64,000 nucleotides of DNA from BD2-11 clade cluster bacterium bin43. Lineage in GTDB: Bacteria; Gemmatimonadota; Gemmatimonadetes; Longimicrobiales; Gaopeijiaceae. The stretch's first letter is position 1; every line of letters starts with the position of its first letter. The DNA lies in assembly GCA_002238605.1 (NCBI GenBank), contig MPMR01000011.1:62001-126000 (forward strand), given 5' to 3'. A program made the position numbers and the translations under genes. Below, in pieces: positions 17,043-34,215 of the stretch. The notes beneath the pieces are model-generated. The model searched no databases and had not been told where the DNA came from. It saw only the letters and a program-made list of their open reading frames with translations.

Positions 17043-17132
17043 ATTCCGACGAATTCGTCCACCCATTCCGAGCGAAGCCGTCCACCTGTTTCGGGCCAAA
17101 CTGGCCACCGATTCCGAGCCAAGTCGTCCGGG
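17043..17132. repeat. IS21 left-end repeats
   Basis: Four copies of a 22-23-bp unit with core TTCCGA (or TTCGGG) and a GTCC/GGCCAC tail start at about 17043, 17065, 17088 and 17111. Multiple end repeats of this kind are transposase-binding sites in IS21-family elements. Confidence 0.6.
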
Positions 17133-17173
17133 TTGAACGGTGGATCGATGAAGGGGTGCTGGACATGGATGGA

Positions 17174-17584
17174 TCAGGCGTGGTCGTGAGGGTCGTGATC
17201 CTTTTGGGTTGAGTCGTATAGCCGCCTCATGGAACCGCCCTTGAGGGTGATGCGGTGGGCGTTGTTGAGGACGACCCTGTCGAGGATGGTTCCGCGGCGG
17301 GCGTAGCGGTCGTCGAGGACCTCGAGCAGATCGTGGCGTCCCTGGCCTGTCAGCGAAGCGAGGCCCCAGTCGTCGAGGACGGGAGCCAGGTCCTGGCGAA
17401 TCGCTGGACGAGCTTGGGGTATGAGCCGTCCGCGAGCCAGGGCGAGTTGGTCGAGGAGCAGGGAGAGGCGGTCCTCGAAGGCGCGTTCGCGGATGTCGGG
17501 CATGGCGAGTTGCTCCTCGAAGGCCTGGGCCATGCCGGCCCGGCGCAGTTCGTGGAGCAGGTCGAGAGTGGGTTGTCGAAGCAT
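17174..17584 (-). pseudogene. istB-like helper ATPase with two internal deletions
   Basis: ATG 17584 opens a 136-residue frame. It starts like IstB ([16 protein letters not shown]) and reaches D-R-L-S-L-L-L-D-Q, then jumps to the Walker B area ([11 protein letters not shown]), R-R-D-L-type helix and R-Y-A-R-R, and then jumps again to the C-terminal [12 protein letters not shown]. Full IstB proteins are about 250 residues. The missing parts include the Walker A loop and the sensor region, so ATP binding is lost even though the frame is open. Confidence 0.75.
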
Positions 17585-17589
17585 GTTCG

Positions 17590-19088
17590 TCACGACTCCT
17601 TTCCGTTGTGGGAGTTGGCGTAGTAGTCCGGTCCGCGGACGTGGGCGTGATCGGCGGGCAGGGACAGCGAGCGCTGGTCGCCGTCGTCGGTAGCTGTGGG
17701 CGCCGATGTCCAGCGCGCGGCGGCAGGCGGCCTCCAGGCGTTCGGCGGAGTAGGCGCGCAGCAGCTTCATGAGGCCGAGGCAACTGCGGTAGCCCTGTTC
17801 GGGGTGGGGCCGGCTCTCGAGGAGTTGTTCGACGAACGCGCCCGTGTGCGGTCCGGCCTTGCGGCCCCAGGCGATGAGCCGCGACGGTGTCCATTCCGCA
17901 TGGGCGCGGTGGACGGCCGGCATGTGCGACGGTTCGTTCGCGTATCCCCCTCTCCTGTGGATCCGCAGGTGAGCAGCGACGCGGCGGTGCTTGTGGAAGA
18001 TCTCCACGGTCTGGGCCGTGATCCGAACGTCTACCTCGTGGCGGGCCAGCGGGTAGGGGACGCTGTAGAGGGCGCGCCCGGCCTGGATGTGATAGTCGAT
18101 GTTGACAAGTGCCTTGCGCCACTCCGCGTACTCGTAGCGCTGGGCCGGGAGCGGCTTGAGCGCCGGCCGGTCCAGATCCTCGAACCAGCTGCTGCGGCTG
18201 CCTTCGGTCTTCTCGAACGGCCGCTCGTTCAGCACGGCCAGCAGCGGCGCGATGGCGTCGCGGAGTTCGCCGAGCGAGAAGAACGTCTGGTTGCGCAGCG
18301 GCGCCATGATCCAGCGCTCGACGTGCTGGACCGCGGCCTCGACCTTCGCCTTGTCCGGCGGAGCGCGGGGCCGTGCCGGCAGCACCGTGGTGCCATAATG
18401 AGTGGCCAGTTCCTGGTACGTCGGGTTCAGATCCGGCTCGTAGCGGCTGCCTCACGGACCCCGGCCTTCTCGTTGTCCGGGATCACAAGCTCCGGCACCC
18501 CGCCCCAAAACTCGAACATCCGGACATGCGACATCGTCCAGTCCGGCAGCGCACGGCTCCAGGTCACGTCCACGAAGGTGTGGTTCGAGGCGCCAAGGAC
18601 ACCGACGAAGACCATGGTGTCGCGGACCTCCCCGGTGCCCCGGTCCACCACCGGGAACTTGGGCCCCCCGTAGTCGACGAACGCCTTCTCGCCTGTCCGG
18701 TAGACCTGCCGCACGACCACGTCGAGTCGCTTTCGCCACGCCCTGTAGCACTCGCAGAACCAGCTGTACTGACACCCGTTCGGATGAACCGCCCGGTATT
18801 CCAGCCACAACAGCTGCAGCGTCACGCCCTTGTGGCGCTGAAGCTCCCGGTGGACGTGGCCCCAGTCCGGCTCCGGTCCGGGAACCCGCGACGGCGGCGG
18901 GGCCGGGAACAGCGCCGCCTCCAGCGCGGCGTCGTCCAGCCCCTCCGGCAGCGGCCATGAGAAGCCCGCCGCGCCTGCCCGCCGCACGTAGTCGCTCACC
19001 GTGCTGTTGGCGATGCCGAGCGAGGTGGCGATCTCGCGGTGGCTGCGAGCTCGTACTTCAGGCGCAGTAGTTCTCGAATCTTCCGCAT
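17590..19088 (-). pseudogene. istA-like transposase with three frameshifts
   Basis: From ATG 19088 the HTH start (M-R-K-I-R-E-L-L-R-L-K-Y-E-L) slips within about 15 codons into the frame giving H-R-E-I-A-T-S-L-G-I-A-N-S-T-V. The core continues with D-Y-G-G-P and W-S-R-A-L-P-D-W, slips again near 18430-18440 into [12 protein letters not shown], and passes through the DDE-E region ([12 protein letters not shown]). A third slip near 17650 is needed to reach the normal end [12 protein letters not shown] at TGA 17590. The transposase is inactive. Confidence 0.75.
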
Positions 19089-19316: not shown

Positions 19317-19820
19317 TCAGGTTTGGTGGTCGGATTGTGCTTCATTGGGCAGTTTGAATCTAAGAGAGCGCGCAAACTCCAGTGCCTTGTCGAGAGCGGT
19401 AATGCGTAGGTCAGGATCGCTGAGTTTTCGTATTAGCTCCGAAGAGCCAGCACCGGCGAACCGGTTTCCGACTTCGATGATCTGGCGCGGATCATCTACG
19501 CCGTCATGATCGAGTCCTAGCATTGGCAAGGCGATGACCGCGAGCACTTCGCACAGCCCGTTTGACATTTGCACAGATCGGGTATCGGCGAACTTGTAGC
19601 CCCAGCGAATAGAGGGTTCCTTGAGCGGTGGGGTTCCAGATGCGATGGCCGAGGTAACGGCAAAAGCCCAGAAGTCCAACTGGCGACGGAAAGGGGCCAT
19701 CTCAGGGCTCGTGGACCCCGATTGGTGCTGTTGCACGAACCGCTGGATGTCGTCTCTGGACTTACGCGGAAGACGCAACGAATGAGCCTGAGACGACAGA
19801 AGGGTTGTGAAGTAGTTCAT
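19317..19820 (-). CDS. Small protein, last gene of the phosphorothioation-linked operon
   Basis: From ATG 19820 (AGGAAGAAG upstream) the product is 167 residues: M-N-Y-F-T-T-L-L-S-S, a basic stretch R-L-P-R-K-S-R-D-D-I, then a helical region with D-F-W-A-F-A-V-T-S-A and W-G-Y-K-F-A-D-T. The K-S-R-D-D and later F-A-G-A-G-S-S-E-L-I segments have no family I can name; by position and size it could play a DndE-like accessory role, but I see no clear DndE motif. The frame is open 31 codons further upstream, which would overlap the ATPase gene; the internal ATG leaves a 10-base gap and has the better ribosome site. Confidence 0.65.
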   Translation of the reverse strand: MNYFTTLLSSQAHSLRLPRKSRDDIQRFVQQHQSGSTSPEMAPFRRQLDFWAFAVTSAIASGTPPLKEPSIRWGYKFADTRSVQMSNGLCEVLAVIALPMLGLDHDGVDDPRQIIEVGNRFAGAGSSELIRKLSDPDLRITALDKALEFARSLRFKLPNEAQSDHQT

Positions 19821-19830
19821 CCGCTTCTTC

Positions 19831-22065
19831 CTAGTTGCGCCTGCTCCAGCCTGGCGAGTCGGCCTGACCAGTTCTTTCGCAGATTTCGCAGTATTGACGT
19901 GGACCGCACGCACACACGAGTGCCACTGGGCGCGTCACGGTCCGTTTGAGAACATCTCCCCCTTGGCCAGCATCGATCGCATCCCACTGTCCGGTGAGGG
20001 TAAACGTTGCGCCAGCGTATCGAGCTACGATCTCCGCTTCCGACGATGCTCCAAGGTCGGATCCGGTCAGCAGAAGGATAGGCTGACTGGAAGTTGTTGC
20101 GGTCACGCGCAGTGTGTTGCGTCGTACGGCGCCAGACATGAAATTCAGCAGTGAGTCAGCGACGAGCGGTGCCTGGGTCTTCGACTCAGTGCATAGCGCG
20201 AGGACAAACGACAGCGCGAGCACGCGCCGGGACGCTCCGTTAATCTCAATCGGTGGCATGGCACGAGCCCGACTATTCATCGCACAGATTTCGTAGTCCT
20301 CGCACTTTGAATCGACGGGGCGAAGACCGACTTCGGCGATCATCTTGAGCGTTGCTTTGTTGCCCTGAAAATTGACGAAGTCGTCGTCTGATACATTGGC
20401 GGCCATCCGTGCGAAAAGGCGGTTCATCCGCTGAGAGAGCTCACTGACCTGTTTGGCCCGGATCGTTCCATATGCCCGGTCGAGCGCCTCAGCGACGCGC
20501 TTCGCCATGCCTTCAGCCGCTCTCTGATCGGCAGCTGCTCGTTCGTTCCGGTGGCGTTGTCGGATTCGCTTCTCGCGTGAGCCAATGTCGGCGACGAGTG
20601 GTGGAAGAGCGACCTCGTCAACGGCCAACTTGCGGTTGAGGGTTTCCACTTGAGTTTCTAGCGCATCGATTTCATCTCGGATCACATGAATCTTCTCTTC
20701 ATCAATCTTGTCGAGCTTGTTGTCAATATCTTGCTTCTCAAGACTTAAATCAGAGAGATTCTGACGAAGGGCGGAAAGGTCCCCGGTAAACCGCGTACTC
20801 TGGTCTTCCCAGTGGTTGGCAGCAGCTCGCTGCATGAGCGACTTGGCGGCGTCATGGAGTAGACCGTGGTAATTCGCACGCTCCTCCTGCTCTGCGGACT
20901 CCGCAATACGATCTTCTACATGTGCGCGATGGATGCCATCGTCGGAGAGGTTCTGACCGCAGACGCAGACCCCCGACTCAAGGAGTTCACGTACGAAGTT
21001 GACGTGTTTGAGTGGGATATAGCCTTGTTCGTAGAGAGGGCGTAGCGTCGCATATGCGTTGGCGATCTTGCTTCTTGCCAGGGAAGCCAGAAGATCGGTT
21101 GACTCGATGTGACTAACGAGGCGCGCAAGAGTTGTTCTCTGTGTATTGATGGCTCGTTCGTAGTGGCGGCGGTTTTGGCTAAGACGGACCCTTAGTTCGT
21201 CGGCCGCTCCAACACCCTTGAGTTCTGTCTCAAGATCGTCTTGACGGCGACGGAGCCGGTCTTCGAGTTCGGTCTTCTGAGTTCGCTGGTCCGAGATCTT
21301 ATCTGTGAGCTCCGTCTTCTCTGCGCGCAGTTGATCTAGTTCTTTTTGGAGCATGTCGAGGTTGGCATCGCCGATAGCCTTAGTAGCCTGCGCACCGAAA
21401 TCTCTCGCGATCTTCTTCACGCGTTCCGAGGCCGCCTTGAATACATCGATACCCAAGAGGCTGTGAACCGCCGCTGTCGTCTTGTCGATTACGGCTCGGC
21501 GGGACATCACCTTGTTCTCGCTACCACCGACGAAATCCGCTGCTTCGTCTGCATCCATCACGAAAAAGTCGCGGAGGTCCCACGGGAGAAGCCGTTCGAT
21601 GACAAGATCAACTCCCGAGGTATGTGGGTTCCATCTGCCATCGTCCCCTTTGGTCATTAGCTGAGCTTGTTCGTTAATGCGACGGAAATCGGGCTCGTCA
21701 TCGCGCGATGCAGGCTTGCCAATCGTCGTTACGGAGCGCACGAGATGGTATACCGTGGACGTTGCGTTGCCCTGCATGTCGTGTCGAGTAGATCCATCGG
21801 TCTCGAATTCAATCTCGACCTCAGTCTTGATTCGGTCGTCGTTTGGACGCCACCAAGCAGGATGGACAGAAAACCTCGCGGAATCTCCCGGCAATCCCTT
21901 TTCGCCATACATGCCCCATCGGAGCGCCCGAAGAAAGGTGGTCTTACCTGAGCCATTTTCGGCGCGGATGACCGTGAGCGGACGTTCGGAATCGATTGAA
22001 GGCTCGATCACGATGTTGTCGAAGCACGCAAACCTAGTGATCTCAACTCGACGAAGTCTCAGCAT
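19831..22065 (-). CDS. DndD-like SMC/RecN-type ATPase with CxC motif
   Basis: A 744-residue ABC/SMC ATPase: Walker A A-E-N-G-S-G-K-T at 36-43, then a long charged coiled coil (about 210-310 and 385-500) interrupted by a Cys motif C-V-C-G at 367-370, where SMC/Rad50-type proteins have a hook. The C-terminal half has the signature and Walker B area (N-G-A-S-R-R-V-L-A-L-S, P-L-V-A-D-S-L-L-N). The tail adds C-A-C-G and C-E-I-C, a likely second zinc site. DndD in the double-strand phosphorothioation system is built the same way. Here it follows the 72-aa gene by 5 bases within the ssp operon, so it probably senses or processes DNA in the restriction arm. Confidence 0.8.
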   Translation of the reverse strand: MLRLRRVEITRFACFDNIVIEPSIDSERPLTVIRAENGSGKTTFLRALRWGMYGEKGLPGDSARFSVHPAWWRPNDDRIKTEVEIEFETDGSTRHDMQGNATSTVYHLVRSVTTIGKPASRDDEPDFRRINEQAQLMTKGDDGRWNPHTSGVDLVIERLLPWDLRDFFVMDADEAADFVGGSENKVMSRRAVIDKTTAAVHSLLGIDVFKAASERVKKIARDFGAQATKAIGDANLDMLQKELDQLRAEKTELTDKISDQRTQKTELEDRLRRRQDDLETELKGVGAADELRVRLSQNRRHYERAINTQRTTLARLVSHIESTDLLASLARSKIANAYATLRPLYEQGYIPLKHVNFVRELLESGVCVCGQNLSDDGIHRAHVEDRIAESAEQEERANYHGLLHDAAKSLMQRAAANHWEDQSTRFTGDLSALRQNLSDLSLEKQDIDNKLDKIDEEKIHVIRDEIDALETQVETLNRKLAVDEVALPPLVADIGSREKRIRQRHRNERAAADQRAAEGMAKRVAEALDRAYGTIRAKQVSELSQRMNRLFARMAANVSDDDFVNFQGNKATLKMIAEVGLRPVDSKCEDYEICAMNSRARAMPPIEINGASRRVLALSFVLALCTESKTQAPLVADSLLNFMSGAVRRNTLRVTATTSSQPILLLTGSDLGASSEAEIVARYAGATFTLTGQWDAIDAGQGGDVLKRTVTRPVALVCACGPRQYCEICERTGQADSPGWSRRN

Positions 22066-22070
22066 TGCTA

Positions 22071-22289
22071 CTACTCCCCGGAGGTCGGTCGGATTACCGC
22101 AGTCGTTTCGATCTTCCTCTTGATCTCCTGGTTGATGCCGTGAATGTGTTTGGTCCGGTGCTGATCCACAAGATCGACGATGTCCATAGTCAAGATGACG
22201 AGCGCTTCTGGCTCGATTCCGTCCTCATGAACGAGGTGTTGCGCTTCCTTCTTGATTTCCCTGTAGATCCGGTCGTAGTTGCTTACCAT
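22071..22289 (-). CDS. Small acidic protein of DNA-modification operon
   Basis: A 72-residue, helical protein (Y-D-R-I-Y-R-E-I-K-K-E-A, then a central V-I-L-T-M-D-I-V-D-L-V-D-Q-H). It begins at ATG 22289, overlapping the helicase stop by 7 bases, and ends 5 bases before the ATPase start, so it is tightly embedded and very likely translated. I recall families of similarly sized proteins described as small partners of DNA-modification systems, next to CxC ATPases, but cannot confirm membership here. A binding-partner role for the helicase or ATPase is the simplest guess. Confidence 0.7.
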   Translation of the reverse strand: MVSNYDRIYREIKKEAQHLVHEDGIEPEALVILTMDIVDLVDQHRTKHIHGINQEIKRKIETTAVIRPTSGE

Positions 22290-24532
22290 GGTCTCCCTCG
22301 CGGCGTTGCTGAAGCTACGGCTTGGTCACCGGCCCGCCGAAGGATAGGTGAGTTCATCCCGTCGGGCCAGTATGCGATCCTAATCCGTTCTAGGTCGGAT
22401 AGCACGCCATCTCGTCCCGCAGCGTTTCTGGCGTGTGAGGCAAACGAGTACGCACGACCCAACTCGGTCCGGATGATCTTCTTCATGCTAGTTGCTTCGT
22501 CAGATCGAAGCGTCTGTGCTGGGGGTAGTGCGAGAAAATCGTGAACGATCGCCCAAGGTTTATTGGGGTGGCGGCGGAGCACGCGGCCTCTCCGTTGGAT
22601 CCATTCTCGTTCAACCGTCGAAGACGCTACGATGAACGCTTCTCTGATGCTGGGGATATCTACCCCTTCATCCAGGACCTTCTTAGCCAGGAGGACTTGA
22701 TAACCACCGTCGGCAAATGCCGTTAGAGTCCGGGCTAGGAGTCTTGGTACAGCAGTGGTATCCTGAGTGACAGGAGCCCATCGAATCTCAAGATTCGTGA
22801 GCATAGCCGCAATATCGTTGAATTGCTGTGGGTTCTTGGATGAGGCGTAGATCAGTACTTGTTTCAACGAGCGCGGTTTGCGTTGCTCGAGCACTGTTTG
22901 CAGCAGCGGCAGCTTGGACCACGCAGTCTCCACAATCCTTCGCCTCGCGATCTTCAGGCTGGTCAGCGTATCGTCGTCATCCTTGATGCCGCTACCGATG
23001 GCGGCCCCAATGCGGCGGGTGAGGGCACGGAACTCCTCGAGCTCGGCGCTGTCGAGTGTTGTTGCATGGACGTAGTAGTTGTACGGAGACAGGCAGAACC
23101 CGATTGCCCGATCAAGCCCAAACTCATAGACCGGCGGCCCCATGAACTCAAACACTTCTTCGGTTCCGTCGGGGTCGTATTGGCGTTCAGGAGTGGCTGA
23201 GAGGGCGAGCCGACGCCCAAAGAAGTCTGGCTTTTGCGAGAGGAATCCCTTTGCACCCAGTGTGTGAGCTTCGTCAGCGATCAACATTGTGGGCACTGGA
23301 GTGTCGTTCCGTCCGATCTTGAGCTCGACAGTGGATTGGAACTTCGCTGAGCAGAGGAGGTTATTCGTGACGATCGCCACATGGGTTCCACCTGCAGCTA
23401 GTCCTCGGAACAGGTTGGTCAGGGCGTAGTCGGTGTTAGGCTCTAGGCTTGGTGCGACGGCCTTGAGCCCGAATGCCAAGACCTCCTTTTGCCACTGCGT
23501 AACAAGCGGTCGTGATGGTGCAGAGATAACTATTAGGAGGGGTTTGTCAGCGAGTCGATTCTGAACGCGGGTTGCACATATCAGGGCCGTAATCGTCTTC
23601 CCAGCACCTGTTGCCATGGAGATGGTGCCACGTTGGGGTTCTGGTCGTGATTCCCACGCTATGACGGCCTCGCCCTGATGAGCGTAGGGTCCCTCCTGCC
23701 ATTTCAACTCTTTCGGGATTGCTAGGCGACGGGGATTTGGATCGACGCTCGGCGCGAGCCTTGCTCGGAGTCTTTCGGTCGGATCGATCGCCCACGCGGG
23801 ACTGCGGTCCTCGCTCACTGCTCCCCTGTAATCTGATTGACCTGGTGCCTTCTCGGGGGCGGTGTGAATAATGTCCTGCTCGAGTGCTTCAGGAAGCTCG
23901 ACCACGCGATCAATGCCCCGACTGCGTCCGTTGGCCCAATCGTCGAGGATTCCCATCCCCTCCCTCACGCGAGCCCGACTGTGCGCAATCCAGGTTACGT
24001 CAACATCAAGGTGCTCGACACCGCTGGCTACGCCGTGCGCGGTGGCGTTGCCGGATCCACGTGCAAGAACCTGGTGCACACCATCGTCAAAAAGCCAAAT
24101 CTTCGGGTGGTAGTTGGATTCAGGAGTGGGGACGGCGATGCGAAGGCGCAACCGTGCAGTGGCGATCATCCAGGCAAGGCAGTCCAATGCGTGACGCCCG
24201 AGTGCGGATGCTTGTGCCCTTCCGTCCACGAACACATCGGTGACCCTTTGTGACGCTTCGTCCGCTGACATGCCGTACGCGTCTTCAATGACTGTTCGCT
24301 CGGCAGCAAACAGCGTGGGCGCAACGGTGAATGTGATCGGGGTAGTGTCTTGGCGATTGATGTATTCGGCGAGGCCGGGGGCTAGCCTGCCAATCCATCC
24401 GGCCGAAAACCAGCCAAAGGCTCCCCGGACCGATGTGGCAGACGCAAATCCTGGAATGAGCACGCGCGGGCCGACGGGGTCGTCCGGGAGTCGGTACAGC
24501 CCCGGACGAATGGTTTGGCGGCCGACAAGCAT
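22283..24532 (-). CDS. PLD-domain plus superfamily 2 helicase
   Basis: The 749-residue protein begins with a phospholipase-D-like region: the HxK motif is H-P-K-I-W (residues 142-146) with R-G-S-G-N-A-T about 15 residues on, the pattern of PLD nucleases fused to helicases. After it comes a full SF2 motor: Q-type and Walker A (M-A-T-G-A-G-K-T), D-E-A-H box (I-A-D-E-A-H-T-L), L-S-A-T-P motif III, and R-R-G-R-V-L-R-R motif VI. It most likely translocates on and cuts DNA. It starts 2 bases after the sigma-like gene ends. This type of enzyme is the natural effector for restriction of unmodified DNA. Confidence 0.85.
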   Translation of the reverse strand: MLVGRQTIRPGLYRLPDDPVGPRVLIPGFASATSVRGAFGWFSAGWIGRLAPGLAEYINRQDTTPITFTVAPTLFAAERTVIEDAYGMSADEASQRVTDVFVDGRAQASALGRHALDCLAWMIATARLRLRIAVPTPESNYHPKIWLFDDGVHQVLARGSGNATAHGVASGVEHLDVDVTWIAHSRARVREGMGILDDWANGRSRGIDRVVELPEALEQDIIHTAPEKAPGQSDYRGAVSEDRSPAWAIDPTERLRARLAPSVDPNPRRLAIPKELKWQEGPYAHQGEAVIAWESRPEPQRGTISMATGAGKTITALICATRVQNRLADKPLLIVISAPSRPLVTQWQKEVLAFGLKAVAPSLEPNTDYALTNLFRGLAAGGTHVAIVTNNLLCSAKFQSTVELKIGRNDTPVPTMLIADEAHTLGAKGFLSQKPDFFGRRLALSATPERQYDPDGTEEVFEFMGPPVYEFGLDRAIGFCLSPYNYYVHATTLDSAELEEFRALTRRIGAAIGSGIKDDDDTLTSLKIARRRIVETAWSKLPLLQTVLEQRKPRSLKQVLIYASSKNPQQFNDIAAMLTNLEIRWAPVTQDTTAVPRLLARTLTAFADGGYQVLLAKKVLDEGVDIPSIREAFIVASSTVEREWIQRRGRVLRRHPNKPWAIVHDFLALPPAQTLRSDEATSMKKIIRTELGRAYSFASHARNAAGRDGVLSDLERIRIAYWPDGMNSPILRRAGDQAVASATPRGRPW

Positions 24533-24534
24533 TG

Positions 24535-26106
24535 CTAGACACCTCTTCGCCGATTCTTGATGCGTTCAAGCAGTGCATCCCCCGATGGGGTCAGACTGCC
24601 CGCAGACGTTGCATCGCTCACGCTATCGCGCCGAAGTTCACAGACCTCGCGGCCTTTGATCACTAACTGAACGCGGTCTCCACGGCTGACACCAAGCTTT
24701 TTGAGTGGCCCAGCAAGATAGCCAAGACTGGGGCCATTGGGCGAGGTGAGCCGCCAGTGAACAGAGACCTTGCCACACCCCTCAGGGTGAGTGACCCGTA
24801 CTTTTATACTACTGTTTGGTTCACAGCCTAGCTCTCGGGCAAGTTCGGGTGGAAAGGCCATCAGACTGTATCCATCGAAATAGAGCTTCTCAACACCAAA
24901 CGTCCAGTATGGGTCGCCGCTAGCGGTGTACCCGTGGATCACGTCGTAGAGATCACGCAGGACGATGGATGACTCGTCTGCCATACTAACATAGCCATCT
25001 TGGATCAAGAACTGCGGAGTTCGGACGTATGCCATGACGCTCGCGATGCTGATACCAAACTGTCTCGGCAACTCCTCTAGTAGCCTATCTAGAGAAGTGG
25101 CACCTCCGTCCTCATTGATACGCTGGATGATCTCAGCCGGGGTTCCTTCGTACACGTCGTCGACCCAATCCGCGAGGCCCCAACGAGTCTTGTCGGCTCT
25201 AACTACGGTGTTCATCACGGACAGTTGGCCGCTAACTTGTTTCGGAGCAAGGCCGGACATCGCCACTATCTCTTCTTTCGTGGCTACTCGACCGAGATCA
25301 AGGAGAGCCGCCTTCACTCGCGCTCTGCCAGTGGGCCGCAACGCTAACCACTTGCCGATTCGATGAAGCTCACATCGCGGGAGAAGACAGGCCCAGTAGC
25401 GATCCCAATCTTCCTCTGGGAGCAGCGAACGAAGCTTGGTTTCGTCAATGAGGCCCACCTCATCCGCGAGAGCCTTAGCATCGCTCCTTAACTGCTCGAC
25501 AACCACTTGAGCTTCGTTGTCGAGACAAATCCCGTGTGCGCAGGAATAACCCAGCTCCTTGGCGATCATGCGGACCGCTAATCCCGCGACTGGCTCGGCA
25601 TAGCCCAACGATACCAACCTGATGTCTTGATCATACTCCTGCTGGATGGCGACTGGCCCAATCCGCAACCGGAGCAGGCCGGCAATGGCCCGAACGGTGG
25701 GAAGAATCGTCGTCTCGATTCGCTGGATCAGACGATTTGCGAGCTGCCTTATTCTCTCTCGAGACACGCCCAGTTCCTCGGCGATATCCTGAAGAGTCCT
25801 GGGGTTCGAGCAATAAAGGCGTTCCTCAAGAATCAGATGATCCCTAGCCGTCAAGCTTTCCAGCATCGTGACGATGTCGGCAATTAGCTTGTCGGCAGGG
25901 CGCCGCCCGCCGGTGAGAGCCCGAATCGGGATAGCGTCCAGCTCAGATGTCAGATCCATAGCGGACGCAATCGATCCCAAGTCAGCCTGTAATGCCTCAG
26001 CGAGTGTGCCAACTCGCTTGAACTCGCCGACGGCGACCAACAACTGCGCGATAAGAGAAGAGGCTCTTTCCCAAGCATGCGAGCCAGAACCGACGGGTGT
26101 AACCAT
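24535..26106 (-). CDS. Sigma-70 region 4-like DNA-binding protein
   Basis: The 523-residue protein contains a sigma-70 region 4-type HTH at about residues 88-135 (L-T-A-R-D-H-L-I-L-E-E-R-L, then I-A-E-E-L-G-V-S-R-E-R-I-R-Q-L). No regions 2 or 3 are present, so it is not a complete sigma factor. The middle has a second winged-helix-like module (K-E-E-I-V-A-M-S-G-L-A-P) and the C-terminal third is beta-rich. Proteins of this kind recur in anti-phage and modification loci, where they may recognise DNA or control the operon. It sits 21 bases after sspD and 2 bases before the helicase. Confidence 0.75.
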   Translation of the reverse strand: MVTPVGSGSHAWERASSLIAQLLVAVGEFKRVGTLAEALQADLGSIASAMDLTSELDAIPIRALTGGRRPADKLIADIVTMLESLTARDHLILEERLYCSNPRTLQDIAEELGVSRERIRQLANRLIQRIETTILPTVRAIAGLLRLRIGPVAIQQEYDQDIRLVSLGYAEPVAGLAVRMIAKELGYSCAHGICLDNEAQVVVEQLRSDAKALADEVGLIDETKLRSLLPEEDWDRYWACLLPRCELHRIGKWLALRPTGRARVKAALLDLGRVATKEEIVAMSGLAPKQVSGQLSVMNTVVRADKTRWGLADWVDDVYEGTPAEIIQRINEDGGATSLDRLLEELPRQFGISIASVMAYVRTPQFLIQDGYVSMADESSIVLRDLYDVIHGYTASGDPYWTFGVEKLYFDGYSLMAFPPELARELGCEPNSSIKVRVTHPEGCGKVSVHWRLTSPNGPSLGYLAGPLKKLGVSRGDRVQLVIKGREVCELRRDSVSDATSAGSLTPSGDALLERIKNRRRGV

Positions 26107-26127: not shown

Positions 26128-26976
26128 TCAAAGTGCACACACCGTACACGGCGTCGCATCATCCTCTTCGTCTAGTGCCTCGCCCAACACCTCCATGAGG
26201 GGGAGATTCACGCGCTTCTTGGCAGCCCGTGAAACGGCGGCTTCGTGCCGCTCCAGAATCTCGTCCCGCCGGGATCTCAGTTCCAGCAGGGTTTCACCTC
26301 CTGACCAGGTGTACTGCCGACCGCGCATGGCGTGGCTGCCAAAGTCTGCATCGCCGTAAACGCCCGCATCGGAAAGCACTTTCCGTTCGATGGCGACAGC
26401 TCGCTCGAACAACTCGGGATGCCGCTCGGCAAGGCCGATCCACTCAGCCTTCCGCTGGTAGAAGCAGAAGTAACACCCAGATCGGGTCCGCCAATCGTAG
26501 TACTCCGGGAGTCCGATACCAGCATCCGCGAGTATCCGCATTACCCCATCGCGGTCGATGCCGTCCTCGATGAAGGGGAACCGGGTTTGGATGTTGGATT
26601 TAGTGGAGATGTAGCCCTTCCGGTTCGACTCGTCGGCGCGTATCGCCACGTAAGATGTCGCCGGCGCGTCACCGATCCATTCCTCGATCGGTTTGATCTT
26701 CATGTTTTTTGTGCACCACCGCATCTGGGGAGAAGGCAGGGTCCCGCGAAACACCTCAAACCAGTGGTCGAAGCCCCGTAGCGCGTTGAGGCGGGCGATC
26801 GGCTTGCCGAGGATGACCTCCAAGCGGGTAAGGTACTCGTATGTCTCGGGGAGTTCGGCACCGGTGTCACAGAAGAAGTACTCCATCTCGGGCACCGTTT
26901 CCCGAAGGTACACGGCGAGCGCGCTGGAGTCTTTACCTCCCGAGATGCCGCAAATGTGGCGAGTGGTGTCAGCCAT
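26128..26976 (-). CDS. sspD: PAPS-reductase-like PP-loop protein of the phosphorothioation system
   Basis: The 282-residue protein opens with the PP-loop S-G-G-K-D-S at residues 12-17 of the ATP-pyrophosphatase/PAPS reductase superfamily. It continues with F-F-C-D-T-G-A-E-L-P-E-T and M-R-W-C-T-K-N, a Cys pair in G-C-Y-F-C-F-Y-Q-R-K, and ends C-T-V-C; these cysteines could hold an iron-sulfur cluster, as in DndC. In the SspABCD system SspD is the ATP pyrophosphatase that activates the DNA backbone for sulfur transfer. The start overlaps the end of sspC by 8 bases, and the gene order after cysteine desulfurase, DUF4007 protein and ATPase is the diagnostic one. Confidence 0.85.
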   Translation of the reverse strand: MADTTRHICGISGGKDSSALAVYLRETVPEMEYFFCDTGAELPETYEYLTRLEVILGKPIARLNALRGFDHWFEVFRGTLPSPQMRWCTKNMKIKPIEEWIGDAPATSYVAIRADESNRKGYISTKSNIQTRFPFIEDGIDRDGVMRILADAGIGLPEYYDWRTRSGCYFCFYQRKAEWIGLAERHPELFERAVAIERKVLSDAGVYGDADFGSHAMRGRQYTWSGGETLLELRSRRDEILERHEAAVSRAAKKRVNLPLMEVLGEALDEEDDATPCTVCAL

Positions 26977-29900
26977 TTTCTATCCTCTTGGTACACGAAT
27001 CTATCCGGTCTTCCGGCTGTCCGCACGTTTGTTCTGGTAGGAGTTGTTCGCCAAGCAGTGCGAGCACCGCCTGTTGCGCGCGATGCCGTGAACCCATCCT
27101 TCTTGCTAACTCGTCGAGGGTGAGGTCAAGGGCTTTGGCTACGTCTTCACGCTCGTGGTGATCAACTCCCACTAGCCGGATGTGCTCACTACCATCCGGG
27201 CGAGTGAAGGCTACGCGGATCGCGCTGAACGGGCCGCCACCGTCGGCTCGGCGCTCGGCGTGAAGCGCAACGAGTCGCTGAAATGCGGCTATTTGCCGGG
27301 CGAGCTCGTGGTCAAAATGTGACTTGTCGCCGTCGGTCCATTCTGCGGGAGCCTTCTTTGCCACGACGGTAGCGATGGCGCTGATCCAGTCCTTGTCCGT
27401 GTCCACGCTGTCGTTGGCGAGGGTTAGGACAAATGCCCGGATCTCTGGGTTCAGGACCTCGTTCTTGAGAGCAGCCGCTTGGCCGCTGACGGCGAGCGGC
27501 GAAATCTCGGCGGCGGTCTCAAGAAGAAGTGCGAGGAGCTCGCTTAGCAGTCGGTCGTAGCGGCCCCCAAGTTCGGCGAGGGCTTCGGCGAGACGCTCGG
27601 CATACTGATCTGTCCAGGCGTAGGTGCCTGTGTCTGGAGGAACCGTTGGAAGTCCGAGGGCACTCGGAAGGCTTCCGAATAGCAGTTCGTCAGGTTCTAC
27701 TGCAGCCAAGAGGGCCTCTCTCGCTCTCAGGGTCGCGGGACTCAGGTCGCGCGTGTGCAGGCTGAAGTTGGCGAGCCGCCGAGCTTGGGAGACCAGGTGA
27801 CCGACAATGGCGAGGACGTTTGCAACTCGGTGTCTTCGGAACCCCGGCCGCACCCCGAGCCGTTCTGCGAGTGCATCGACAACCTGCTGACGTGCACCCG
27901 TCGTATTGGCAAAGTGCTTCACGTCGAAGTGACGTGGGTTGCGGACCAGCCGCTCCGACATCTCGGTAGTAAGCAGGGGTATGAAGGTGCCATGTTCGTA
28001 GATCGCGATCTCGTCGCTGAAGGCGAGTAGCGCCGCTGTGACGAAGACCGGAATGACGCTGGCCTTCATCCCCACGGGGGGAGAGAGCAGCGCCGCGTAG
28101 ATGTCGTTGAGGTTGATGCGGCGAGTCCTGGCGCGCATGAACTCGCCTTCGAGGACTCGCCATGCGGGCTGAAGCGAGACATCGGTGGGCATGCGGAAGA
28201 CCGCGCCCGTGTCGGAGTCGCCACCGTGAAGTCCGGTGCGTTCCAGAAACGCCCTGTACATGGCGACCTCCGGTCCGTAGCCATCTAGCCCCAAGCCTGG
28301 CTCGGAACCCTGCTCAATCATGGCCTTGAGCAGGAGACGCCGGGCTTTCGCTCCTTGGGAGGTCAGGGCAGTACGGTTGAGCATTTCATTGCGGACCGTC
28401 GGTGTGAACGGATACGTAGCATCGGCTGCCTGCGATAGTGCGGTGCTGCCACGACCGGCTCGCAGCTCCTGCACACCGGAGGCCTCGAGCAGAACCCACA
28501 TGCAGGCATCAGCGCTGAATGTGGCATTGAGGAAGTGTTCGAGTGCTATGCGTGTCTCCGCCAACCGCTCCCCAAGTTCGCGCCGGGCCACCCAGTCCTC
28601 TTTGACCGATGGATCCTCTAGTACGCTCGTCACGACCGCGACCTCACGCGCCGCTTGGTCTAGCGCGGTTAGGTCTTGCGGGATTGCAGCGACTGTCGGC
28701 TTTGCCGCCGTCGAGGAGCGGGTAAGGCCGAGTTCTTGGTGAAGTGACCCAACGACGAGCAATGCTTCGCCGTCATAGGGGGAAAACGGATCGAGAGGCT
28801 CGATGCGCTCACTGCCATCCACATAACGTCTGGAGAACACACGCAACACATCGTGCTTCGCGCTATGCCGCGCCGCCACTACCGGGCGGGGCTTGCTGTT
28901 CGCCGACAGGATATCAACCAGGGGCCGGAGCTGCACTCTCCTCCGGGCGGCGTCGAGCAGGCGCCGGATGTCGATATCGGTTCCTTGCCAAAGCCGGTAC
29001 TCGTCGGCGTAGTCCCGATAGGTAACGATGCCTGCCGTCTCAAGTTCGGCGAGCGTATCGCTCACATGGGTGCCGGTGTGGGCGAGCACGGGGCGGGACG
29101 CCCGAATCACGCCCGTGGTCGACACCAGATTGAGTATGGCGATCGTCTTGGCCAGCTGCGTCTGTCGCTTGGAAAAGCCGTGGATGTCCCGCAGTCGGGT
29201 TGCTACCTCAGTCCAGCGGCTCGATTGGCGGTCGGACAGAGTCCCCAGAGTACCGCTGGCGACAAAATAGTCGTAGACGGTGTCGAGACCGATTGATGGA
29301 AGCCGTCCCCGCTTCGGCAACTTGGTGCTTTCCAAGAAGAATGCCGCGCTTGCCGGCTCCGGGCTGGTCAGGAAGGAGAACATGGTACGTTCGTGCTGCC
29401 CGTATCGGCTGCACAATTCGGGCAAGATGGCGGCGGCAAGAGGATGAAGCGGATAGCAGGACGCCACGACGCTCGGGTCCGCGAGGTCCGTGATGCCGAG
29501 TGAGCGCATAGTCCTGGCCTGGACCCGGGCCCAGCGAGCGATGCGGTTGTTGAGTCCATCGTCTTGGACTCTGAAGACGGTCCCGATGAGAGCGCGGCTC
29601 TGGTTACCCGATTCGATGTAGGCGATGTTCTCGAAACGCCCCTGCACCTTGGCCCACTCCCGCCGTTGCGGACCGTCGGTATCAGCCAGATAGTCCTCGA
29701 AGGAAAGGTGCTGCAGCGTAAGCATGAAGATGGGAAGCCCCACACCTTGGCCTGCTTCCGCGAGTTGCTGGAGCAAATAGGGGTCGGCGTCGCTGCTGTC
29801 TCGAATCGCTTCCAGGTTTTTGCCGAATTCGTCAATCACCAGCAGCAGCGGTGCATCGCTTGCCAAGCAAGAGGCAACTTCGACTAGTGCCGCTGGCGAC

Positions 29901-30436
29901 GGTCCGGTTCGTCGGGGATCGTGGGTCGCTGCATCCTTTAGCGCTCCTCTGAGCGCAGCGGCGGCGCGGAACCTGGTGGCCGGAGGAATCTCGCCATAGG
30001 TGCCCAGGACGGCTTTATGGAGTCCCCGGAGTACAGTATGGCTGAGGGGTTCGCGGTTGGCGGTAACCAGACCACGATGAAATCCGGTGACAAGGGTCTG
30101 GTGACGCTGGTGGACCTGCCGCATCAGCTCTGCAATGTGCGGGGAGGAGTCGCCCATCAGCTTCCATGCGACATCTCGCGTCGGACTGGCGGGGCCGAAT
30201 GCGGCGTCAAGCACCAAAGCAAGCGACGATTTGCCGGAGCCGTAGGGTCCGGTGAGCGACCAAGCGCCTCCCGATGGCTCAGCTGCCGCAACCGCCGTAA
30301 TCCGCGTAATGGCATCGAGTGCGCGCGCGGTAAGGATGTATCCGTCGAGCGGTTCGGGTCGGCCGGAATCACGTTCGAGATTCGCGGAGCGAGAGAATCG
30401 GGGAAGGACCCGAATGTAGTCGGCGAGGACTTCCAT
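26969..30436 (-). CDS. sspC: Large P-loop ATPase of the phosphorothioation system
   Basis: An 1155-residue protein with Walker A G-P-Y-G-S-G-K-S at 63-70 and Walker B L-L-L-V-I-D-E-F-G-K around residue 200. The rest is largely helical without a motif I recognise; the C-terminus contains a T-C-G and S-C-T pair. By place and type it is the SspC ATPase, thought to drive the DNA transactions of the SspBCD complex. BREX BrxC proteins have a similar build, but no pglZ, pglX or brxL is near. It begins in a TAATG overlap with the sspB stop at 30436, so the two are coupled. Confidence 0.8.
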   Translation of the reverse strand: MEVLADYIRVLPRFSRSANLERDSGRPEPLDGYILTARALDAITRITAVAAAEPSGGAWSLTGPYGSGKSSLALVLDAAFGPASPTRDVAWKLMGDSSPHIAELMRQVHQRHQTLVTGFHRGLVTANREPLSHTVLRGLHKAVLGTYGEIPPATRFRAAAALRGALKDAATHDPRRTGPSPAALVEVASCLASDAPLLLVIDEFGKNLEAIRDSSDADPYLLQQLAEAGQGVGLPIFMLTLQHLSFEDYLADTDGPQRREWAKVQGRFENIAYIESGNQSRALIGTVFRVQDDGLNNRIARWARVQARTMRSLGITDLADPSVVASCYPLHPLAAAILPELCSRYGQHERTMFSFLTSPEPASAAFFLESTKLPKRGRLPSIGLDTVYDYFVASGTLGTLSDRQSSRWTEVATRLRDIHGFSKRQTQLAKTIAILNLVSTTGVIRASRPVLAHTGTHVSDTLAELETAGIVTYRDYADEYRLWQGTDIDIRRLLDAARRRVQLRPLVDILSANSKPRPVVAARHSAKHDVLRVFSRRYVDGSERIEPLDPFSPYDGEALLVVGSLHQELGLTRSSTAAKPTVAAIPQDLTALDQAAREVAVVTSVLEDPSVKEDWVARRELGERLAETRIALEHFLNATFSADACMWVLLEASGVQELRAGRGSTALSQAADATYPFTPTVRNEMLNRTALTSQGAKARRLLLKAMIEQGSEPGLGLDGYGPEVAMYRAFLERTGLHGGDSDTGAVFRMPTDVSLQPAWRVLEGEFMRARTRRINLNDIYAALLSPPVGMKASVIPVFVTAALLAFSDEIAIYEHGTFIPLLTTEMSERLVRNPRHFDVKHFANTTGARQQVVDALAERLGVRPGFRRHRVANVLAIVGHLVSQARRLANFSLHTRDLSPATLRAREALLAAVEPDELLFGSLPSALGLPTVPPDTGTYAWTDQYAERLAEALAELGGRYDRLLSELLALLLETAAEISPLAVSGQAAALKNEVLNPEIRAFVLTLANDSVDTDKDWISAIATVVAKKAPAEWTDGDKSHFDHELARQIAAFQRLVALHAERRADGGGPFSAIRVAFTRPDGSEHIRLVGVDHHEREDVAKALDLTLDELARRMGSRHRAQQAVLALLGEQLLPEQTCGQPEDRIDSCTKRIENG

Positions 30437-31434
30437 TACGGCAGCCTTGCGACAGCAGGATGCATCAGTTTGTTCCCCTTCATGCCAATTTGGCAGTTGT
30501 CGGCTGGTTCTCTATAGTACGCATCCAGGACTTTGTTGGCGACCTGGTTTGGCTCTTCCGACCACGAGAGTTGGGAACCGGCCGTGGTGCCCACCAGGTC
30601 CAGCTCGTCCGTGCGCGCAACGGCGGGCTCTAGCCCGGCGAGGAATTCGCCTTCGGTAAGCTTGAACGCCCTCCCCGGAGCACCTGGCTCACGAGCCAGA
30701 CGACTGAGCGTGATCGTGTTCCCGCCCGTCTTGGTGCGGCTGATGTAGTCCAAGGCGGTGTAGGTCAGAATTTCCGACGGCAGAGTGGGCTTCTCACCCA
30801 GCGTGAACCGGTAGCCCTCCGTCGTGGCCGAGCGTCCGATCAAGTTCAGTTCACGAAGAGGACAGTCCAGGATGTCGTCGATGCCGGTGCGCTTGCGCTT
30901 GGAGTGGTCCGGCGAAGCATATGTACGCAGCAGAGCGCTCACGTCTTTCTTTATTGAGGATGGATGTGGCTTGGTCCACTCGGCGGCGTCGAGCTGCATG
31001 TTGATGGCCGCCTGGAGGTCGTCGTCCGTGAACTCGACGGCATGGAATTCGTGGAAGGCAAGCCACCACACGGGCAGCCGCGAGGGTGGCGCTAGTAACA
31101 TCCAATGCAACAGCCAAAGTGTCCCCGGATCTTCCATGTACCGGTCCCATCCGGCGTTGCCGAACAACCTATGGCCTAGATCGGTGGGAATGAGATTGGG
31201 CACGCGCCTGCTGCGAGACCTCTTGTCTTCCCTGATGAGCTTGGCGGCGAGGCCCCAGAAGCGGATGGCCCGAACCATGTTCTTGCCAACTCCGATCTCA
31301 ACGGTGGCGTCCCTCCGGAGGAAGACGCCAGGGTCTTTCTCCACGAAAGCGTAGGCCTTGCGAAACCACCCGTAACGGGGATGGAACGTCTCGTGTCTAG
31401 CGAACGACTTCACGGCCGCTTCGACTAATCGCAC
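30436..31434 (-). CDS. sspB: DUF4007 protein of the phosphorothioation system
   Basis: The 332-residue protein has the DUF4007 opening (F-A-R-H-E-T-F-H-P-R-Y-G-W-F-R-K-A) and G-V-G-K-N-M-V-R-A-I-R-F-W, W-L-L-H-W-M-L-L, then S-I-K-K-D-V-S-A-L-L-R-T-Y. DUF4007 is the domain of SspB, described as the DNA-nicking component that opens the way for sulfur insertion in one strand. The GTG start at 31434 directly follows the TAG of the cysteine desulfurase gene, and its stop overlaps sspC. The strict order sspA-sspB-sspC-sspD supports this naming. Confidence 0.88.
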   Translation of the reverse strand: MRLVEAAVKSFARHETFHPRYGWFRKAYAFVEKDPGVFLRRDATVEIGVGKNMVRAIRFWGLAAKLIREDKRSRSRRVPNLIPTDLGHRLFGNAGWDRYMEDPGTLWLLHWMLLAPPSRLPVWWLAFHEFHAVEFTDDDLQAAINMQLDAAEWTKPHPSSIKKDVSALLRTYASPDHSKRKRTGIDDILDCPLRELNLIGRSATTEGYRFTLGEKPTLPSEILTYTALDYISRTKTGGNTITLSRLAREPGAPGRAFKLTEGEFLAGLEPAVARTDELDLVGTTAGSQLSWSEEPNQVANKVLDAYYREPADNCQIGMKGNKLMHPAVARLP

Positions 31435-32595
31435 CTAGGCTACCTCCTCGGTCATCCTGCGAACGAATTCAACCGCCGCGACAGCGCGCTCGACACCGGC
31501 TTCGATGTCTTCCGGTGTAGTGAAGCGGCCTAGGCTGAACCTAACCGCTTCGTAGGCCGCGGCACGAGATAGTCCCATGGCGAGGAGTACCCGGGAAGGT
31601 TCGATTGAGCCCGAGCTACAGGCGCTACCTGTAGACACCGCGACGGGCTCCATGTTGATCACGACCGCGTCTGCATCGGCGCCACGAAAGAGGACGTTGG
31701 CCGTGTTCGGAAGCCTGCGTGAGACGTCTCCGATGTCTGAAACGCTGGGCAGCTTCGATTTCAGGACAGCCGTAAGACGATCACGGAGCTTAGCAACACG
31801 AGCCGACTCGCACTCTCGGTCTTCGGCGGCAATGCGGGCCGCCACACCGAACCCGGCGATGCCGGCGACGTTCAACGAGCCCGACCTCAGCCCCCGTTCG
31901 TGACCGCCTCCGTGAATGATCGGTTCCAGCCGCCGTAGGCTGTGGCGAGTTCCCACGAGGGCCCCGACACCGCTCGGGCCGCACATCTTGTGACCGCTGA
32001 GCGACACGAGATCCGCACCGGAACGCTCCATATCGAACGGAAGTCTACCGGCAAACTGCGTGACATCAGAATGGACCAACGCCCCGACCGAATGGGCTCG
32101 CTCGGACACTTCCCGAACCGGATTCAGCACTCCGGTTTCGCCGTTCGCCGCCGTCAGCGACACTAGCTGCACGTCGATATCGAGCAGCGTATCCAAGGCT
32201 TGAAGATCAACGAACCCCCCGGCGGTCACTGGGATGATGTCCAGCTTCGCCAGCCCCCGGTCTTCGAGCCATCGGGCGGTTCGCAAGACGGAAGCGTGCT
32301 CGACCGCTGAGATCACGATCCGGCGCCGGTTTGTCGGTGCCCTTTCCATGAGGCCGCGGAGAGCGAGGTTGTTGGCTTCGGTCGCGCTCGCCGTAAAGAC
32401 TGTATCCGCAGGGCGACCGCCGACGAGCGCGGCGACGCGTTCGCGGGCCTCGTCAACTCTGGCGGTCTGGCGCCGCCCGAATCCATGCGTGGAGGATGCG
32501 TTGCCGGTGCCTTCCATGAGGATTGGCACCATGGCCTCGGCCACACGCGGATCGAGCGGCGCCGACCCGTTGTAATCGAGGTACACTTCTTTCAT
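31435..32595 (-). CDS. sspA: Cysteine desulfurase (sulfur donor for DNA phosphorothioation)
   Basis: A 386-residue class V aminotransferase-fold, PLP-dependent cysteine desulfurase. The cofactor lysine is Lys203 in S-G-H-K-M-C-G-P, the substrate histidine is in A-V-E-H-A-S (His100), and the persulfide cysteine is Cys326 in S-T-G-S-A-C-S-S-G. Length and motifs are those of the IscS/DndA/SspA group. Placement directly before the DUF4007 gene shows that it is the dedicated sulfur donor of this operon rather than a housekeeping IscS. It starts at ATG 32595, 51 bases after the Fic gene ends. Confidence 0.9.
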   Translation of the reverse strand: MKEVYLDYNGSAPLDPRVAEAMVPILMEGTGNASSTHGFGRRQTARVDEARERVAALVGGRPADTVFTASATEANNLALRGLMERAPTNRRRIVISAVEHASVLRTARWLEDRGLAKLDIIPVTAGGFVDLQALDTLLDIDVQLVSLTAANGETGVLNPVREVSERAHSVGALVHSDVTQFAGRLPFDMERSGADLVSLSGHKMCGPSGVGALVGTRHSLRRLEPIIHGGGHERGLRSGSLNVAGIAGFGVAARIAAEDRECESARVAKLRDRLTAVLKSKLPSVSDIGDVSRRLPNTANVLFRGADADAVVINMEPVAVSTGSACSSGSIEPSRVLLAMGLSRAAAYEAVRFSLGRFTTPEDIEAGVERAVAAVEFVRRMTEEVA

Positions 32596-32646: not shown

Positions 32647-34215
32647 CTACGCAAACCGAGTTGCAGCCGTCGAGCATTTCCCGGGATTTACCACTTCCTT
32701 GCCGAAACATCGCCTGTACAACTCCTCCACCCACTCCACCTCCTCCGTGGACAGCCCCTTGAACTCGCAGGCACGCGCCCTCTCGGACAACCTGCCGTGG
32801 TTCTGCCGGAGAAACTGCGCCAGCAGGTTGGTGGTTGTCTCCGGCATGTCTGCAATGTCCTCCTGGACGCGTCGCGCAAACTCTTCGTATCCCTCCAGAT
32901 ACGCGATTTCCCCGGGAAGATCCCGGGTCACTGTCTCCTCGACACACTTGTAGAGGAACTCGGCGTGGGCCGTTGCGTCGAAGAAACGGTAGTAATCGAC
33001 CGTGTCGTTCAGGACCTCGACGTTGTGTCGCCTCGTCGTGCGCCAATCGACCAGAGGGAGTACCTCCCGGGAATAGCTGGTTAGAACCTCACGGTAGTCA
33101 GTGAGTCGCCTCAGCATCGCGACGCTCACCGGGAACACCATGTCCGGCGGGTTGTAGCCGGCGCGGGCCAGCACATGGTGGATCAGCCAGCGGTGGAGGC
33201 GTCCATTCCCGTCCTCGAACGGGTGGATGTAGACGAAGCCGAACGACAGGGCGGCCGCCACTACAACGGGATCGAAGGGCGTTGCCTGATTCTGCTGCGC
33301 GTATTCTACGAGCCCCCGGATGAGGTCGGGCAGATCCTCCGGACGTGCGCTGACGTGCACCGGGATGGGATCCATGGTCGCCCGGTCACGCACCCCGATC
33401 CATCCACCTTCGGTCCTGAGCCCAAGCTGCACGAACCGCGCATCGCCTATCACGATCTTCTGCAGGCGCTCGAGTTCATCGTCGGTGAGGTCGCGACGGC
33501 CGGCGTCGGCGGTCGCCCAGGCCCAACGCAGGCGTCGATCTTGCCGCGCGTGTTCTCCCTCGATCTCAAAGGACGCCTTGCTGTCGTCGTAGGGAAGAAG
33601 CTGGGCAGCGCGGCGGACGATTTCAGGGTGGGTCCGTCCGACGATCTGCCGGGCTTCCGCATCGAGCCGCATCCGCGCATAGCGATCGAGTTCGGGGGTC
33701 CGGCGCACCATCGGACAGAAGCGCTGCGTACCCGGGAGATTGTTCCGGACTCGGTGGCGTCGCGAGAGCGGGCCGCTCTCGGGAGCAAACTGAAGTTCGG
33801 GATCCACCACCGGAACGGCTTTCACCTTGCCGGCGTCCGGCAGATCCAGCCGCACGTCCATCAGCCACTCGTAGAGGAACCAGATCCGACGGGTGTACTT
33901 GCCCGTAGGCTTGTCGCGCACCATCCGGACGATGTCCGCTGGCCCGACTCGCCGGAAGAGCGCGCGCAGCACGGCGAGGCTTGCGCCCTCCCATTTCACG
34001 GCAAACTCGAGTTGGTCCGCGAGGCTCTCTTCGGGTGCGAGACTCGGAGCGAACATGCGCCACTGGCGCGTGGAGTCGGGATGATGGCGGTTTGCGATCG
34101 CTACCAGGCGTGACGGAGGTGGTACCCGAAGATCGTACTCGGCGATGAGCGCCGCGTAGCCGGCAGGCGTTCCCGGTTCGGGTAGGGCTGGCCATCGGTG
34201 GTTCACGACCGACAC
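32647..34215 (-). CDS. Fic-family AMPylator with N-terminal inhibitory motif
   Basis: The 522-residue protein carries the Fic catalytic motif H-P-F-E-D-G-N-G-R at 331-339 and an N-terminal inhibitory helix motif S-x-x-x-E-G at residues 215-220 (Ser215, Glu219, Gly220), placing it among class II, self-inhibited Fic proteins. Fic enzymes usually transfer AMP to hydroxyl side chains of target proteins. The C-terminal 130 residues are helical. It is encoded first in the same direction as sspABCD with a 51-base gap, so it may be cotranscribed. The start is GTG 34215, about 17 bases after the nearest Shine-Dalgarno; an in-frame GTG three codons later is an alternative. Confidence 0.85.
   Translation of the reverse strand: MSVVNHRWPALPEPGTPAGYAALIAEYDLRVPPPSRLVAIANRHHPDSTRQWRMFAPSLAPEESLADQLEFAVKWEGASLAVLRALFRRVGPADIVRMVRDKPTGKYTRRIWFLYEWLMDVRLDLPDAGKVKAVPVVDPELQFAPESGPLSRRHRVRNNLPGTQRFCPMVRRTPELDRYARMRLDAEARQIVGRTHPEIVRRAAQLLPYDDSKASFEIEGEHARQDRRLRWAWATADAGRRDLTDDELERLQKIVIGDARFVQLGLRTEGGWIGVRDRATMDPIPVHVSARPEDLPDLIRGLVEYAQQNQATPFDPVVVAAALSFGFVYIHPFEDGNGRLHRWLIHHVLARAGYNPPDMVFPVSVAMLRRLTDYREVLTSYSREVLPLVDWRTTRRHNVEVLNDTVDYYRFFDATAHAEFLYKCVEETVTRDLPGEIAYLEGYEEFARRVQEDIADMPETTTNLLAQFLRQNHGRLSERARACEFKGLSTEEVEWVEELYRRCFGKEVVNPGKCSTAATRFA

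What the first reader, a model, noticed from the sequence alone, without database searches (positions are those of the whole stretch)
26128..32595. Complete SspABCD-type single-strand DNA phosphorothioation operon
Seen: cysteine desulfurase (K203, C326), DUF4007 protein, large P-loop ATPase and PP-loop protein (S-G-G-K-D-S) in that order with overlaps or no gaps. Known: this is the sspABCD order for backbone sulfur modification on one strand. Inference: the organism marks its DNA with sulfur and restricts unmarked DNA.
Basis: partly seen in the sequence, partly recalled or inferred. Interest (0 to 1): 0.75.

Follow-up and report, generated by a model that had tools for sequence, protein, structure and literature searches.

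The report
Sulfur-marking DNA defence operon, two modules
A bacterium carries, twice, a gene set that should tag its own DNA with sulfur on one strand, joined in one operon to a DNA-attacking module so far described with a different (double-strand) sulfur-tagging system, which fills part of a known gap: what most such tagging systems are paired with.

Summary
In detail: 32595-26128 (-) encodes SspA, SspB (DUF4007), SspC and SspD, overlapping or abutting, with intact motifs; profiles prefer Ssp over BREX and Dnd. The same genome holds a second, rearranged Ssp-Pbe cassette and no DndC match, so Pbe is not serving a Dnd system there. In 395 genomes of the phylum, 6 of 8 full-length PbeA loci lie beside sspD; in a wider collection 20 of 53 sspD loci with enough flank carry PbeA and PbeC. 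In the papers I could search, PbeABCD is described with DndCDEA or near methylases, SspABCD with SspE or SspFGH; I found no Ssp-Pbe pairing. Best reading: single-strand phosphorothioate self-marking coupled to Pbe restriction, the B3/sigma protein probably reading targets (inferred). Neither modification nor restriction was tested. New variant of a known kind.

The parts
31435..32595 (-). sspA, cysteine desulfurase (K203, C326)
   Evidence: PADLOC SspA 407 bits; Aminotran_5; motifs. DndA profile is close behind (396 bits), so the SspA label rests on context
30436..31434 (-). sspB, DUF4007 triple winged-helix protein, predicted nickase / target selector
   Evidence: Pfam DUF4007, PADLOC SspB 345 bits, solved SspB 6juf/6lb9 E=6e-66
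26969..30436 (-). sspC, large ATPase
   Evidence: PADLOC SspC 1019 bits against 321 for BrxC; Walker motifs
26128..26976 (-). sspD, PP-loop sulfurtransferase (SGGKDS)
   Evidence: PADLOC SspD 362 bits; PAPS_reduct
24535..26106 (-). 523-aa DNA-binding protein: sigma-70 region 4, winged helix about 258-314, B3-like domain about 395-498; lacks the N-terminal alpha-CTD-like part of its relatives
   Evidence: Pfam Sigma70_r4 39.8 bits; family alignment; AlphaFold model pLDDT 88; LlaJI.R1 B3-like Z 9.0
22283..24532 (-). pbeA, HKD nuclease fused to SF2 helicase
   Evidence: PADLOC PbeA 493 bits; NCBIfam dnd_restrict_1 310.7 bits, below its cut-off of 600; HPKIWLFD...GSGN
22071..22289 (-). pbeB-position small protein, 72 aa
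   Evidence: ORF between pbeA and pbeC; ORF of 67-75 aa with the same pattern in all 11 loci with this Pbe type
19831..22065 (-). pbeC, coiled-coil ABC ATPase with CxC hook (CVCG)
   Evidence: PADLOC PbeC 158 bits, DndD 79; CxCG in every full-length relative
19317..19820 (-). pbeD, DndE-like protein (ORF open from 19913; conserved start at 19820)
   Evidence: Family alignment; model aligns best to DndE 5wtu, Z 7.4 over 98 of 98 residues

Best explanation
It is one nine-gene phosphorothioate (PT) defence operon. Modification: SspA takes sulfur from cysteine and hands it to SspD; SspB with the SspC ATPase selects and nicks the site, so that sulfur enters one strand at a short motif (unknown here). 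Restriction: the coiled-coil ATPase PbeC with DndE-like PbeD scans DNA; the HKD nuclease-helicase PbeA, perhaps held in check by small PbeB, blocks replication of or cuts DNA that lacks the mark. The sigma4-winged-helix-B3 protein between the modules most likely supplies target recognition to the Pbe module. Shown here: gene content, order, intact motifs, recurrent coupling of the modules. Known for homologues elsewhere: sulfur mobilisation and the SspA-SspD complex, SspB nicking, PT-dependent block of viral replication by PbeABCD. Inferred: that this copy is active, that Pbe reads the single-strand mark, and the role of the reader protein.
For: Profiles and motifs for all nine genes. A second Ssp-Pbe cassette with another gene order in the same genome and no DndC match there. 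20 of 53 sspD loci with at least 6 kb downstream carry PbeA and PbeC. 6 of 8 PbeA loci over 400 bits in 395 genomes of the phylum lie beside sspD. Correlated divergence, e.g. SspA-PbeA 0.80, SspD-PbeA 0.68, reader-PbeC 0.94. Literature on the homologues: PMC7188994, PMC6459918, PMC10853773.
Against: No PT, restriction or expression data. Pbe modules also occur without Ssp (L100 with Dnd, L101 with neither in view), and Ssp without Pbe, so the pairing is not obligatory. PbeD rests on a middling fold match (Z 7.4). The divergence correlations use 9-11 related loci and partly reflect common descent. In archaea PbeABCD was described with a double-strand mark, so reading a single-strand mark is an extrapolation.
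Confidence: 0.72

Rival explanations
1. Two independent systems sharing a defence island: SspABCD is a solitary PT-modification operon, and the Pbe (CxC) module beside it works on its own or with another mark.
For: Pbe and Ssp each occur without the other; the CxC system is argued to be independent of PT modification in many genomes (PMC10853773); the divergence blocks SspB-SspC and PbeA-PbeC are each tighter than the link between them.
Against: Nine genes in one strand with gaps of at most 21 bp; same coupling with different gene order in a second cassette of the same genome; 6 of 8 PbeA loci of the phylum beside sspD.
Confidence: 0.15
2. Same operon, but the sigma4/B3 protein is a transcription factor that controls the operon, not the target reader of the nuclease.
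For: Sigma-70 region 4 in all 17 relatives and an alpha-CTD-like stretch in some are RNA-polymerase-linked modules; the relative in the second cassette sits on the opposite strand.
Against: C-terminal B3-like domain closest to the restriction endonuclease LlaJI.R1 among others; co-divergence with PbeA (0.89) and PbeC (0.94); window copy lacks the alpha-CTD-like part.
Confidence: 0.35
3. Same operon, but the effector works by cell suicide: PbeA cuts host DNA when a phage product displaces PbeB, and PT is a brake rather than a self-mark.
For: Proposed for CxC systems by PMC10853773 because PbeA has a real HKD nuclease; HKD motif intact here and a conserved small PbeB-position protein.
Against: In the archaeal system viral DNA replication is blocked and loss of PT is not toxic (PMC6459918), which fits a mark-dependent block better.
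Confidence: 0.2
4. A type 4 BREX system, which shares SspB-, SspC- and SspD-like parts.
For: SspC scores 321 bits against BrxC and SspD 38 against BrxP; PMC12839542 describes the shared components.
Against: Ssp profiles score far higher, and none of the ten proteins scanned in the operon and its flanks hits a PglZ or BrxL profile.
Confidence: 0.02

Closest known systems
SspABCD-SspE and SspABCD-SspFGH (Vibrio, E. coli, Streptomyces)
   Same: The four modification genes in the order A-B-C-D, with the same families and catalytic motifs
   Different: The partner genes: here a sigma4/B3 protein plus PbeABCD; no SspE- or SspFGH-like gene in the operon. SspE-type DUF262 proteins exist elsewhere in the genome but not beside either cassette
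DndCDEA-PbeABCD (Haloterrigena jeotgali A29; the CxC ABC-ATPase/DndE system of Aravind and colleagues)
   Same: PbeA HKD-SF2 helicase, small PbeB, CxC-hook PbeC and DndE-like PbeD, in that order
   Different: Modification module is Ssp (single-strand mark in the studied homologues), not Dnd; an extra sigma4/winged-helix/B3 protein
CglI / NgoAVII restriction systems
   Same: PLD-type nuclease, DEAD-family ATPase and a B3-like recognition domain work together (PMC4267653, PMC5737866)
   Different: There nuclease and B3-like domain share one protein and the mark is methylation; here nuclease and helicase are fused and the B3-like domain is in a separate protein. Analogy only; no membership claimed

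Membership tests
SspABCD modification module | sspA cysteine desulfurase, sspB DUF4007, sspC ATPase, sspD PP-loop protein in one cluster | tested here: met
SspABCD modification module | Catalytic residues: PLP lysine and cysteine of SspA, SGGKDS of SspD, Walker motifs of SspC | tested here: met
SspABCD modification module | PT on one strand (5'-CpsCA-3' in studied systems) made by nicking SspB | not testable with these tools
   Needs LC-MS or strand-resolved sequencing
SspABCD-SspE / SspABCD-SspFGH | sspE (DUF262-DUF1524) or sspFGH beside the modification genes | tested here: not met
   No such gene in the operon; DUF262 proteins lie only on other contigs than the two cassettes. SspFGH has no profile here; judged from gene content
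PbeABCD / CxC ABC-ATPase system | PbeA: HKD nuclease fused to SF2 helicase | tested here: met
   493 bits, HPKIWLFD...GSGN and helicase motifs
PbeABCD / CxC ABC-ATPase system | PbeC: coiled-coil ABC ATPase with CxC hook | tested here: met
   158 bits PbeC against 79 DndD; CVCG
PbeABCD / CxC ABC-ATPase system | PbeD: DndE cognate with two ribbon-helix-helix units | tested here: inconclusive
   No sequence hit; DndE is the top fold match at Z 7.4 and 6.8, a middling value
PbeABCD / CxC ABC-ATPase system | PbeB: small, fast-evolving protein between pbeA and pbeC | tested here: met
   72-aa ORF, counterparts in 11 loci; not compared with archaeal PbeB itself
PbeABCD / CxC ABC-ATPase system | PT-dependent block of virus replication | not testable with these tools
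   Known for the archaeal system only (PMC6459918)
Type 4 BREX | PglZ and BrxL present | tested here: not met
   No PglZ or BrxL profile hit among the ten proteins scanned in the operon and its flanks

The most novel reading that the evidence does not exclude
A PT defence type in which a single-strand (Ssp) sulfur mark licenses a CxC/Pbe nuclease-helicase, with a sigma4/winged-helix/B3 protein as its own target-recognition subunit; two differently ordered copies in one genome suggest that the two modules were joined more than once.
Probability: 0.4. Interest if true: 0.7.

Novelty: new variant of a known kind. Interest (0 to 1): 0.52.

Why it matters
83.9% of sspBCD loci had no SspE or SspFGH partner in the published survey (PMC8092258). 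This names a partner that can be tested now, shows that Pbe is not tied to the Dnd double-strand mark, and poses a clean question: how one effector family can read both a mark on two strands and a mark on one.

Tried and rejected
Sequence-profile search for PbeD: no hit in PADLOC, Pfam, PHROGs or the PDB; only the fold gave a lead, and Foldseek alone gave no PbeD match below E=1. CCA counts in the window say nothing about PT, because composition drives them. Promoter and terminator scan: at or below shuffled expectation. The Fic gene upstream (32647-34215) was considered as a tenth member: 51 bp from sspA, but no relative found at any of the 80 sspD loci, so left out. BREX type 4 rejected on profile margins.

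Full report
Check of the observation. PADLOC profiles identify SspA (407 bits), SspB (345), SspC (1019) and SspD (362); the nearest competitors are DndA at 396 for SspA, BrxC at 321 for SspC, and BrxP at 38 and DndC at 27 for SspD. SspB is DUF4007 by Pfam and matches the solved SspB structures 6juf and 6lb9 at E=6e-66. K203, C326, SGGKDS and the Walker motifs of SspC are present.

The operon is longer than reported. Downstream on the same strand, with gaps or overlaps of 2 to 21 bp, lie a 523-aa sigma-70 region 4 protein (26106-24535), PbeA (24532-22283), a 72-aa ORF in the PbeB position (22289-22071), PbeC (22065-19831) and a small protein whose conserved start is at 19820 (19820-19317). PbeA keeps HPKIWLFD...GSGN and the helicase motifs; PbeC keeps Walker A and the CxC hook (CVCG) that marks the CxC ABC ATPases (PMC10853773). 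All 11 loci with this Pbe type have an ORF of 67-75 aa between pbeA and pbeC with a shared pattern (MVSNYDRI at the start, a central EIV or KIVD block). For PbeD no sequence profile hits, but the AlphaFold model (pLDDT 82) aligns best to DndE, 5wtu, Z 7.4 over all 98 residues, in line with PbeD being a DndE cognate (PMC10853773). That Z is middling, so I count the fold as probable only.

The extra protein. All 17 relatives have sigma-70 region 4; two of them score against the RNA polymerase alpha-subunit C-terminal domain, in an N-terminal part that most relatives have and the window copy lacks. The model (pLDDT 88) shows a winged helix at about 258-314 (Z up to 9.4) and at about 395-498 a B3-like domain that matches the restriction endonuclease LlaJI.R1 (Z 9.0) and plant B3 domains; BfiI also appears in the Foldseek list. 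B3-like domains do sequence recognition in restriction enzymes, and CglI/NgoAVII combine a PLD-type nuclease, a DEAD-family ATPase and a B3-like domain (PMC4267653, PMC5737866; in part my own knowledge). I therefore think it is the target reader of the Pbe module, at about 0.6; a transcription factor remains a live rival.

Are the two modules linked by function? Five lines. Second, the genome (97% complete) has no DndC match, so neither Pbe copy is likely to serve a Dnd system. The 80 are the closest relatives by SspD, so this fraction is not a survey of all Ssp loci. In two Nonomuraea loci the Pbe genes lie upstream of sspA instead. Fourth, in 395 genomes of the phylum there are 8 PbeA matches over 400 bits; 6 lie beside sspD; of the other two, one sits beside Dnd-type genes and one has neither in view. 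Fifth, divergence is correlated between modules (SspD-PbeA 0.68, SspA-PbeA 0.80, SspC-PbeA 0.68) and is tightest inside each block (PbeA-PbeC 0.93, reader-PbeC 0.94, SspB-SspC 0.89). With 9 to 11 related loci these correlations partly reflect common descent.

What is known. SspABCD is described with SspE and with SspFGH, and 83.9% of sspBCD loci had neither (PMC8092258). PbeABCD was described with archaeal DndCDEA, where protection needs PT, virus DNA stays intact and PT loss is not toxic (PMC6459918); Rakesh et al. reread it as a CxC ATPase system with a real HKD nuclease and suggest DNA cleavage or suicide (PMC10853773). Searches for papers naming Pbe together with Ssp found 9, and the ones opened list them as separate branches. 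I found no report of the Ssp-Pbe pairing in this library, which lacks most subscription journals, so the claim is limited to it.

Where it lives. Contigs of relatives in the same GTDB family as the window genome are the same DNA as records titled Gemmatimonadetes (L103=L030, L105=L020, L102=L061), so the genome is probably Gemmatimonadota. Many of the record names point to marine-sponge bins (my reading of the names). Record titles are not reliable: L059, titled Gammaproteobacteria, is the same contig as one of the window's own genus (L104). The apparent spread over phyla at 80-88% SspD identity suggests horizontal transfer, but mis-binned contigs would give the same picture.

Verdict. A real, apparently intact, extended PT defence operon; parts known, combination not described in what I could read; function inferred. 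New variant of a known kind.

Noticed in passing
L005:11036-19641 with L007:1-4501 (window genome, contig C62): Second Ssp-Pbe cassette in the same genome, order sspB-C-D-A-pbeA-pbeB-pbeC-pbeD, with a 601-aa relative of the sigma4/B3 reader converging on it.
   Followed up: yes
L042:10933-15406; genes of similar size after sspD in L029, L047, L053, L068, L070, L074, L080, L085, L086: Another recurrent partner of Ssp: SF2 helicase (about 540 aa), MORC/GHKL ATPase (about 630 aa, weak MzaB hit) and a roughly 300-aa protein with a weak DrmC/PLD hit. Families checked in L042 and in part in L080 only; the rest by gene size.
   Followed up: partly
   Followed up: partly
window 32647-34215 (-): Fic-domain protein, 604 bits to the candidate defence family PDC-S24, 51 bp upstream of sspA; no relative at the 80 sspD loci.
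   Followed up: partly
window 15939-18999 (-): IS21-like and IS3-like transposase pieces directly downstream of the operon; the G+C content also drops to 0.56-0.58 over 20-26 kb, as in a mobile island.
   Followed up: no
window 14570-15902 (+): Two-gene pair of unknown function: 277-aa protein and 168-aa protein with hydrophobic stretches, in a low-G+C patch (0.54); no Pfam hit over cut-off.
   Followed up: no
window 19831-22065 (-), C-terminus of PbeC: Besides the CxC hook, every PbeC relative that reaches its C-terminus has a four-cysteine cluster there, CxC-x5-CxxC; possibly a second zinc site.
   Followed up: partly
L081:3619-4464: A contig binned as the archaeon Cenarchaeum carries an sspD 72% identical to the window's: interdomain transfer or mis-binning.
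   Followed up: no
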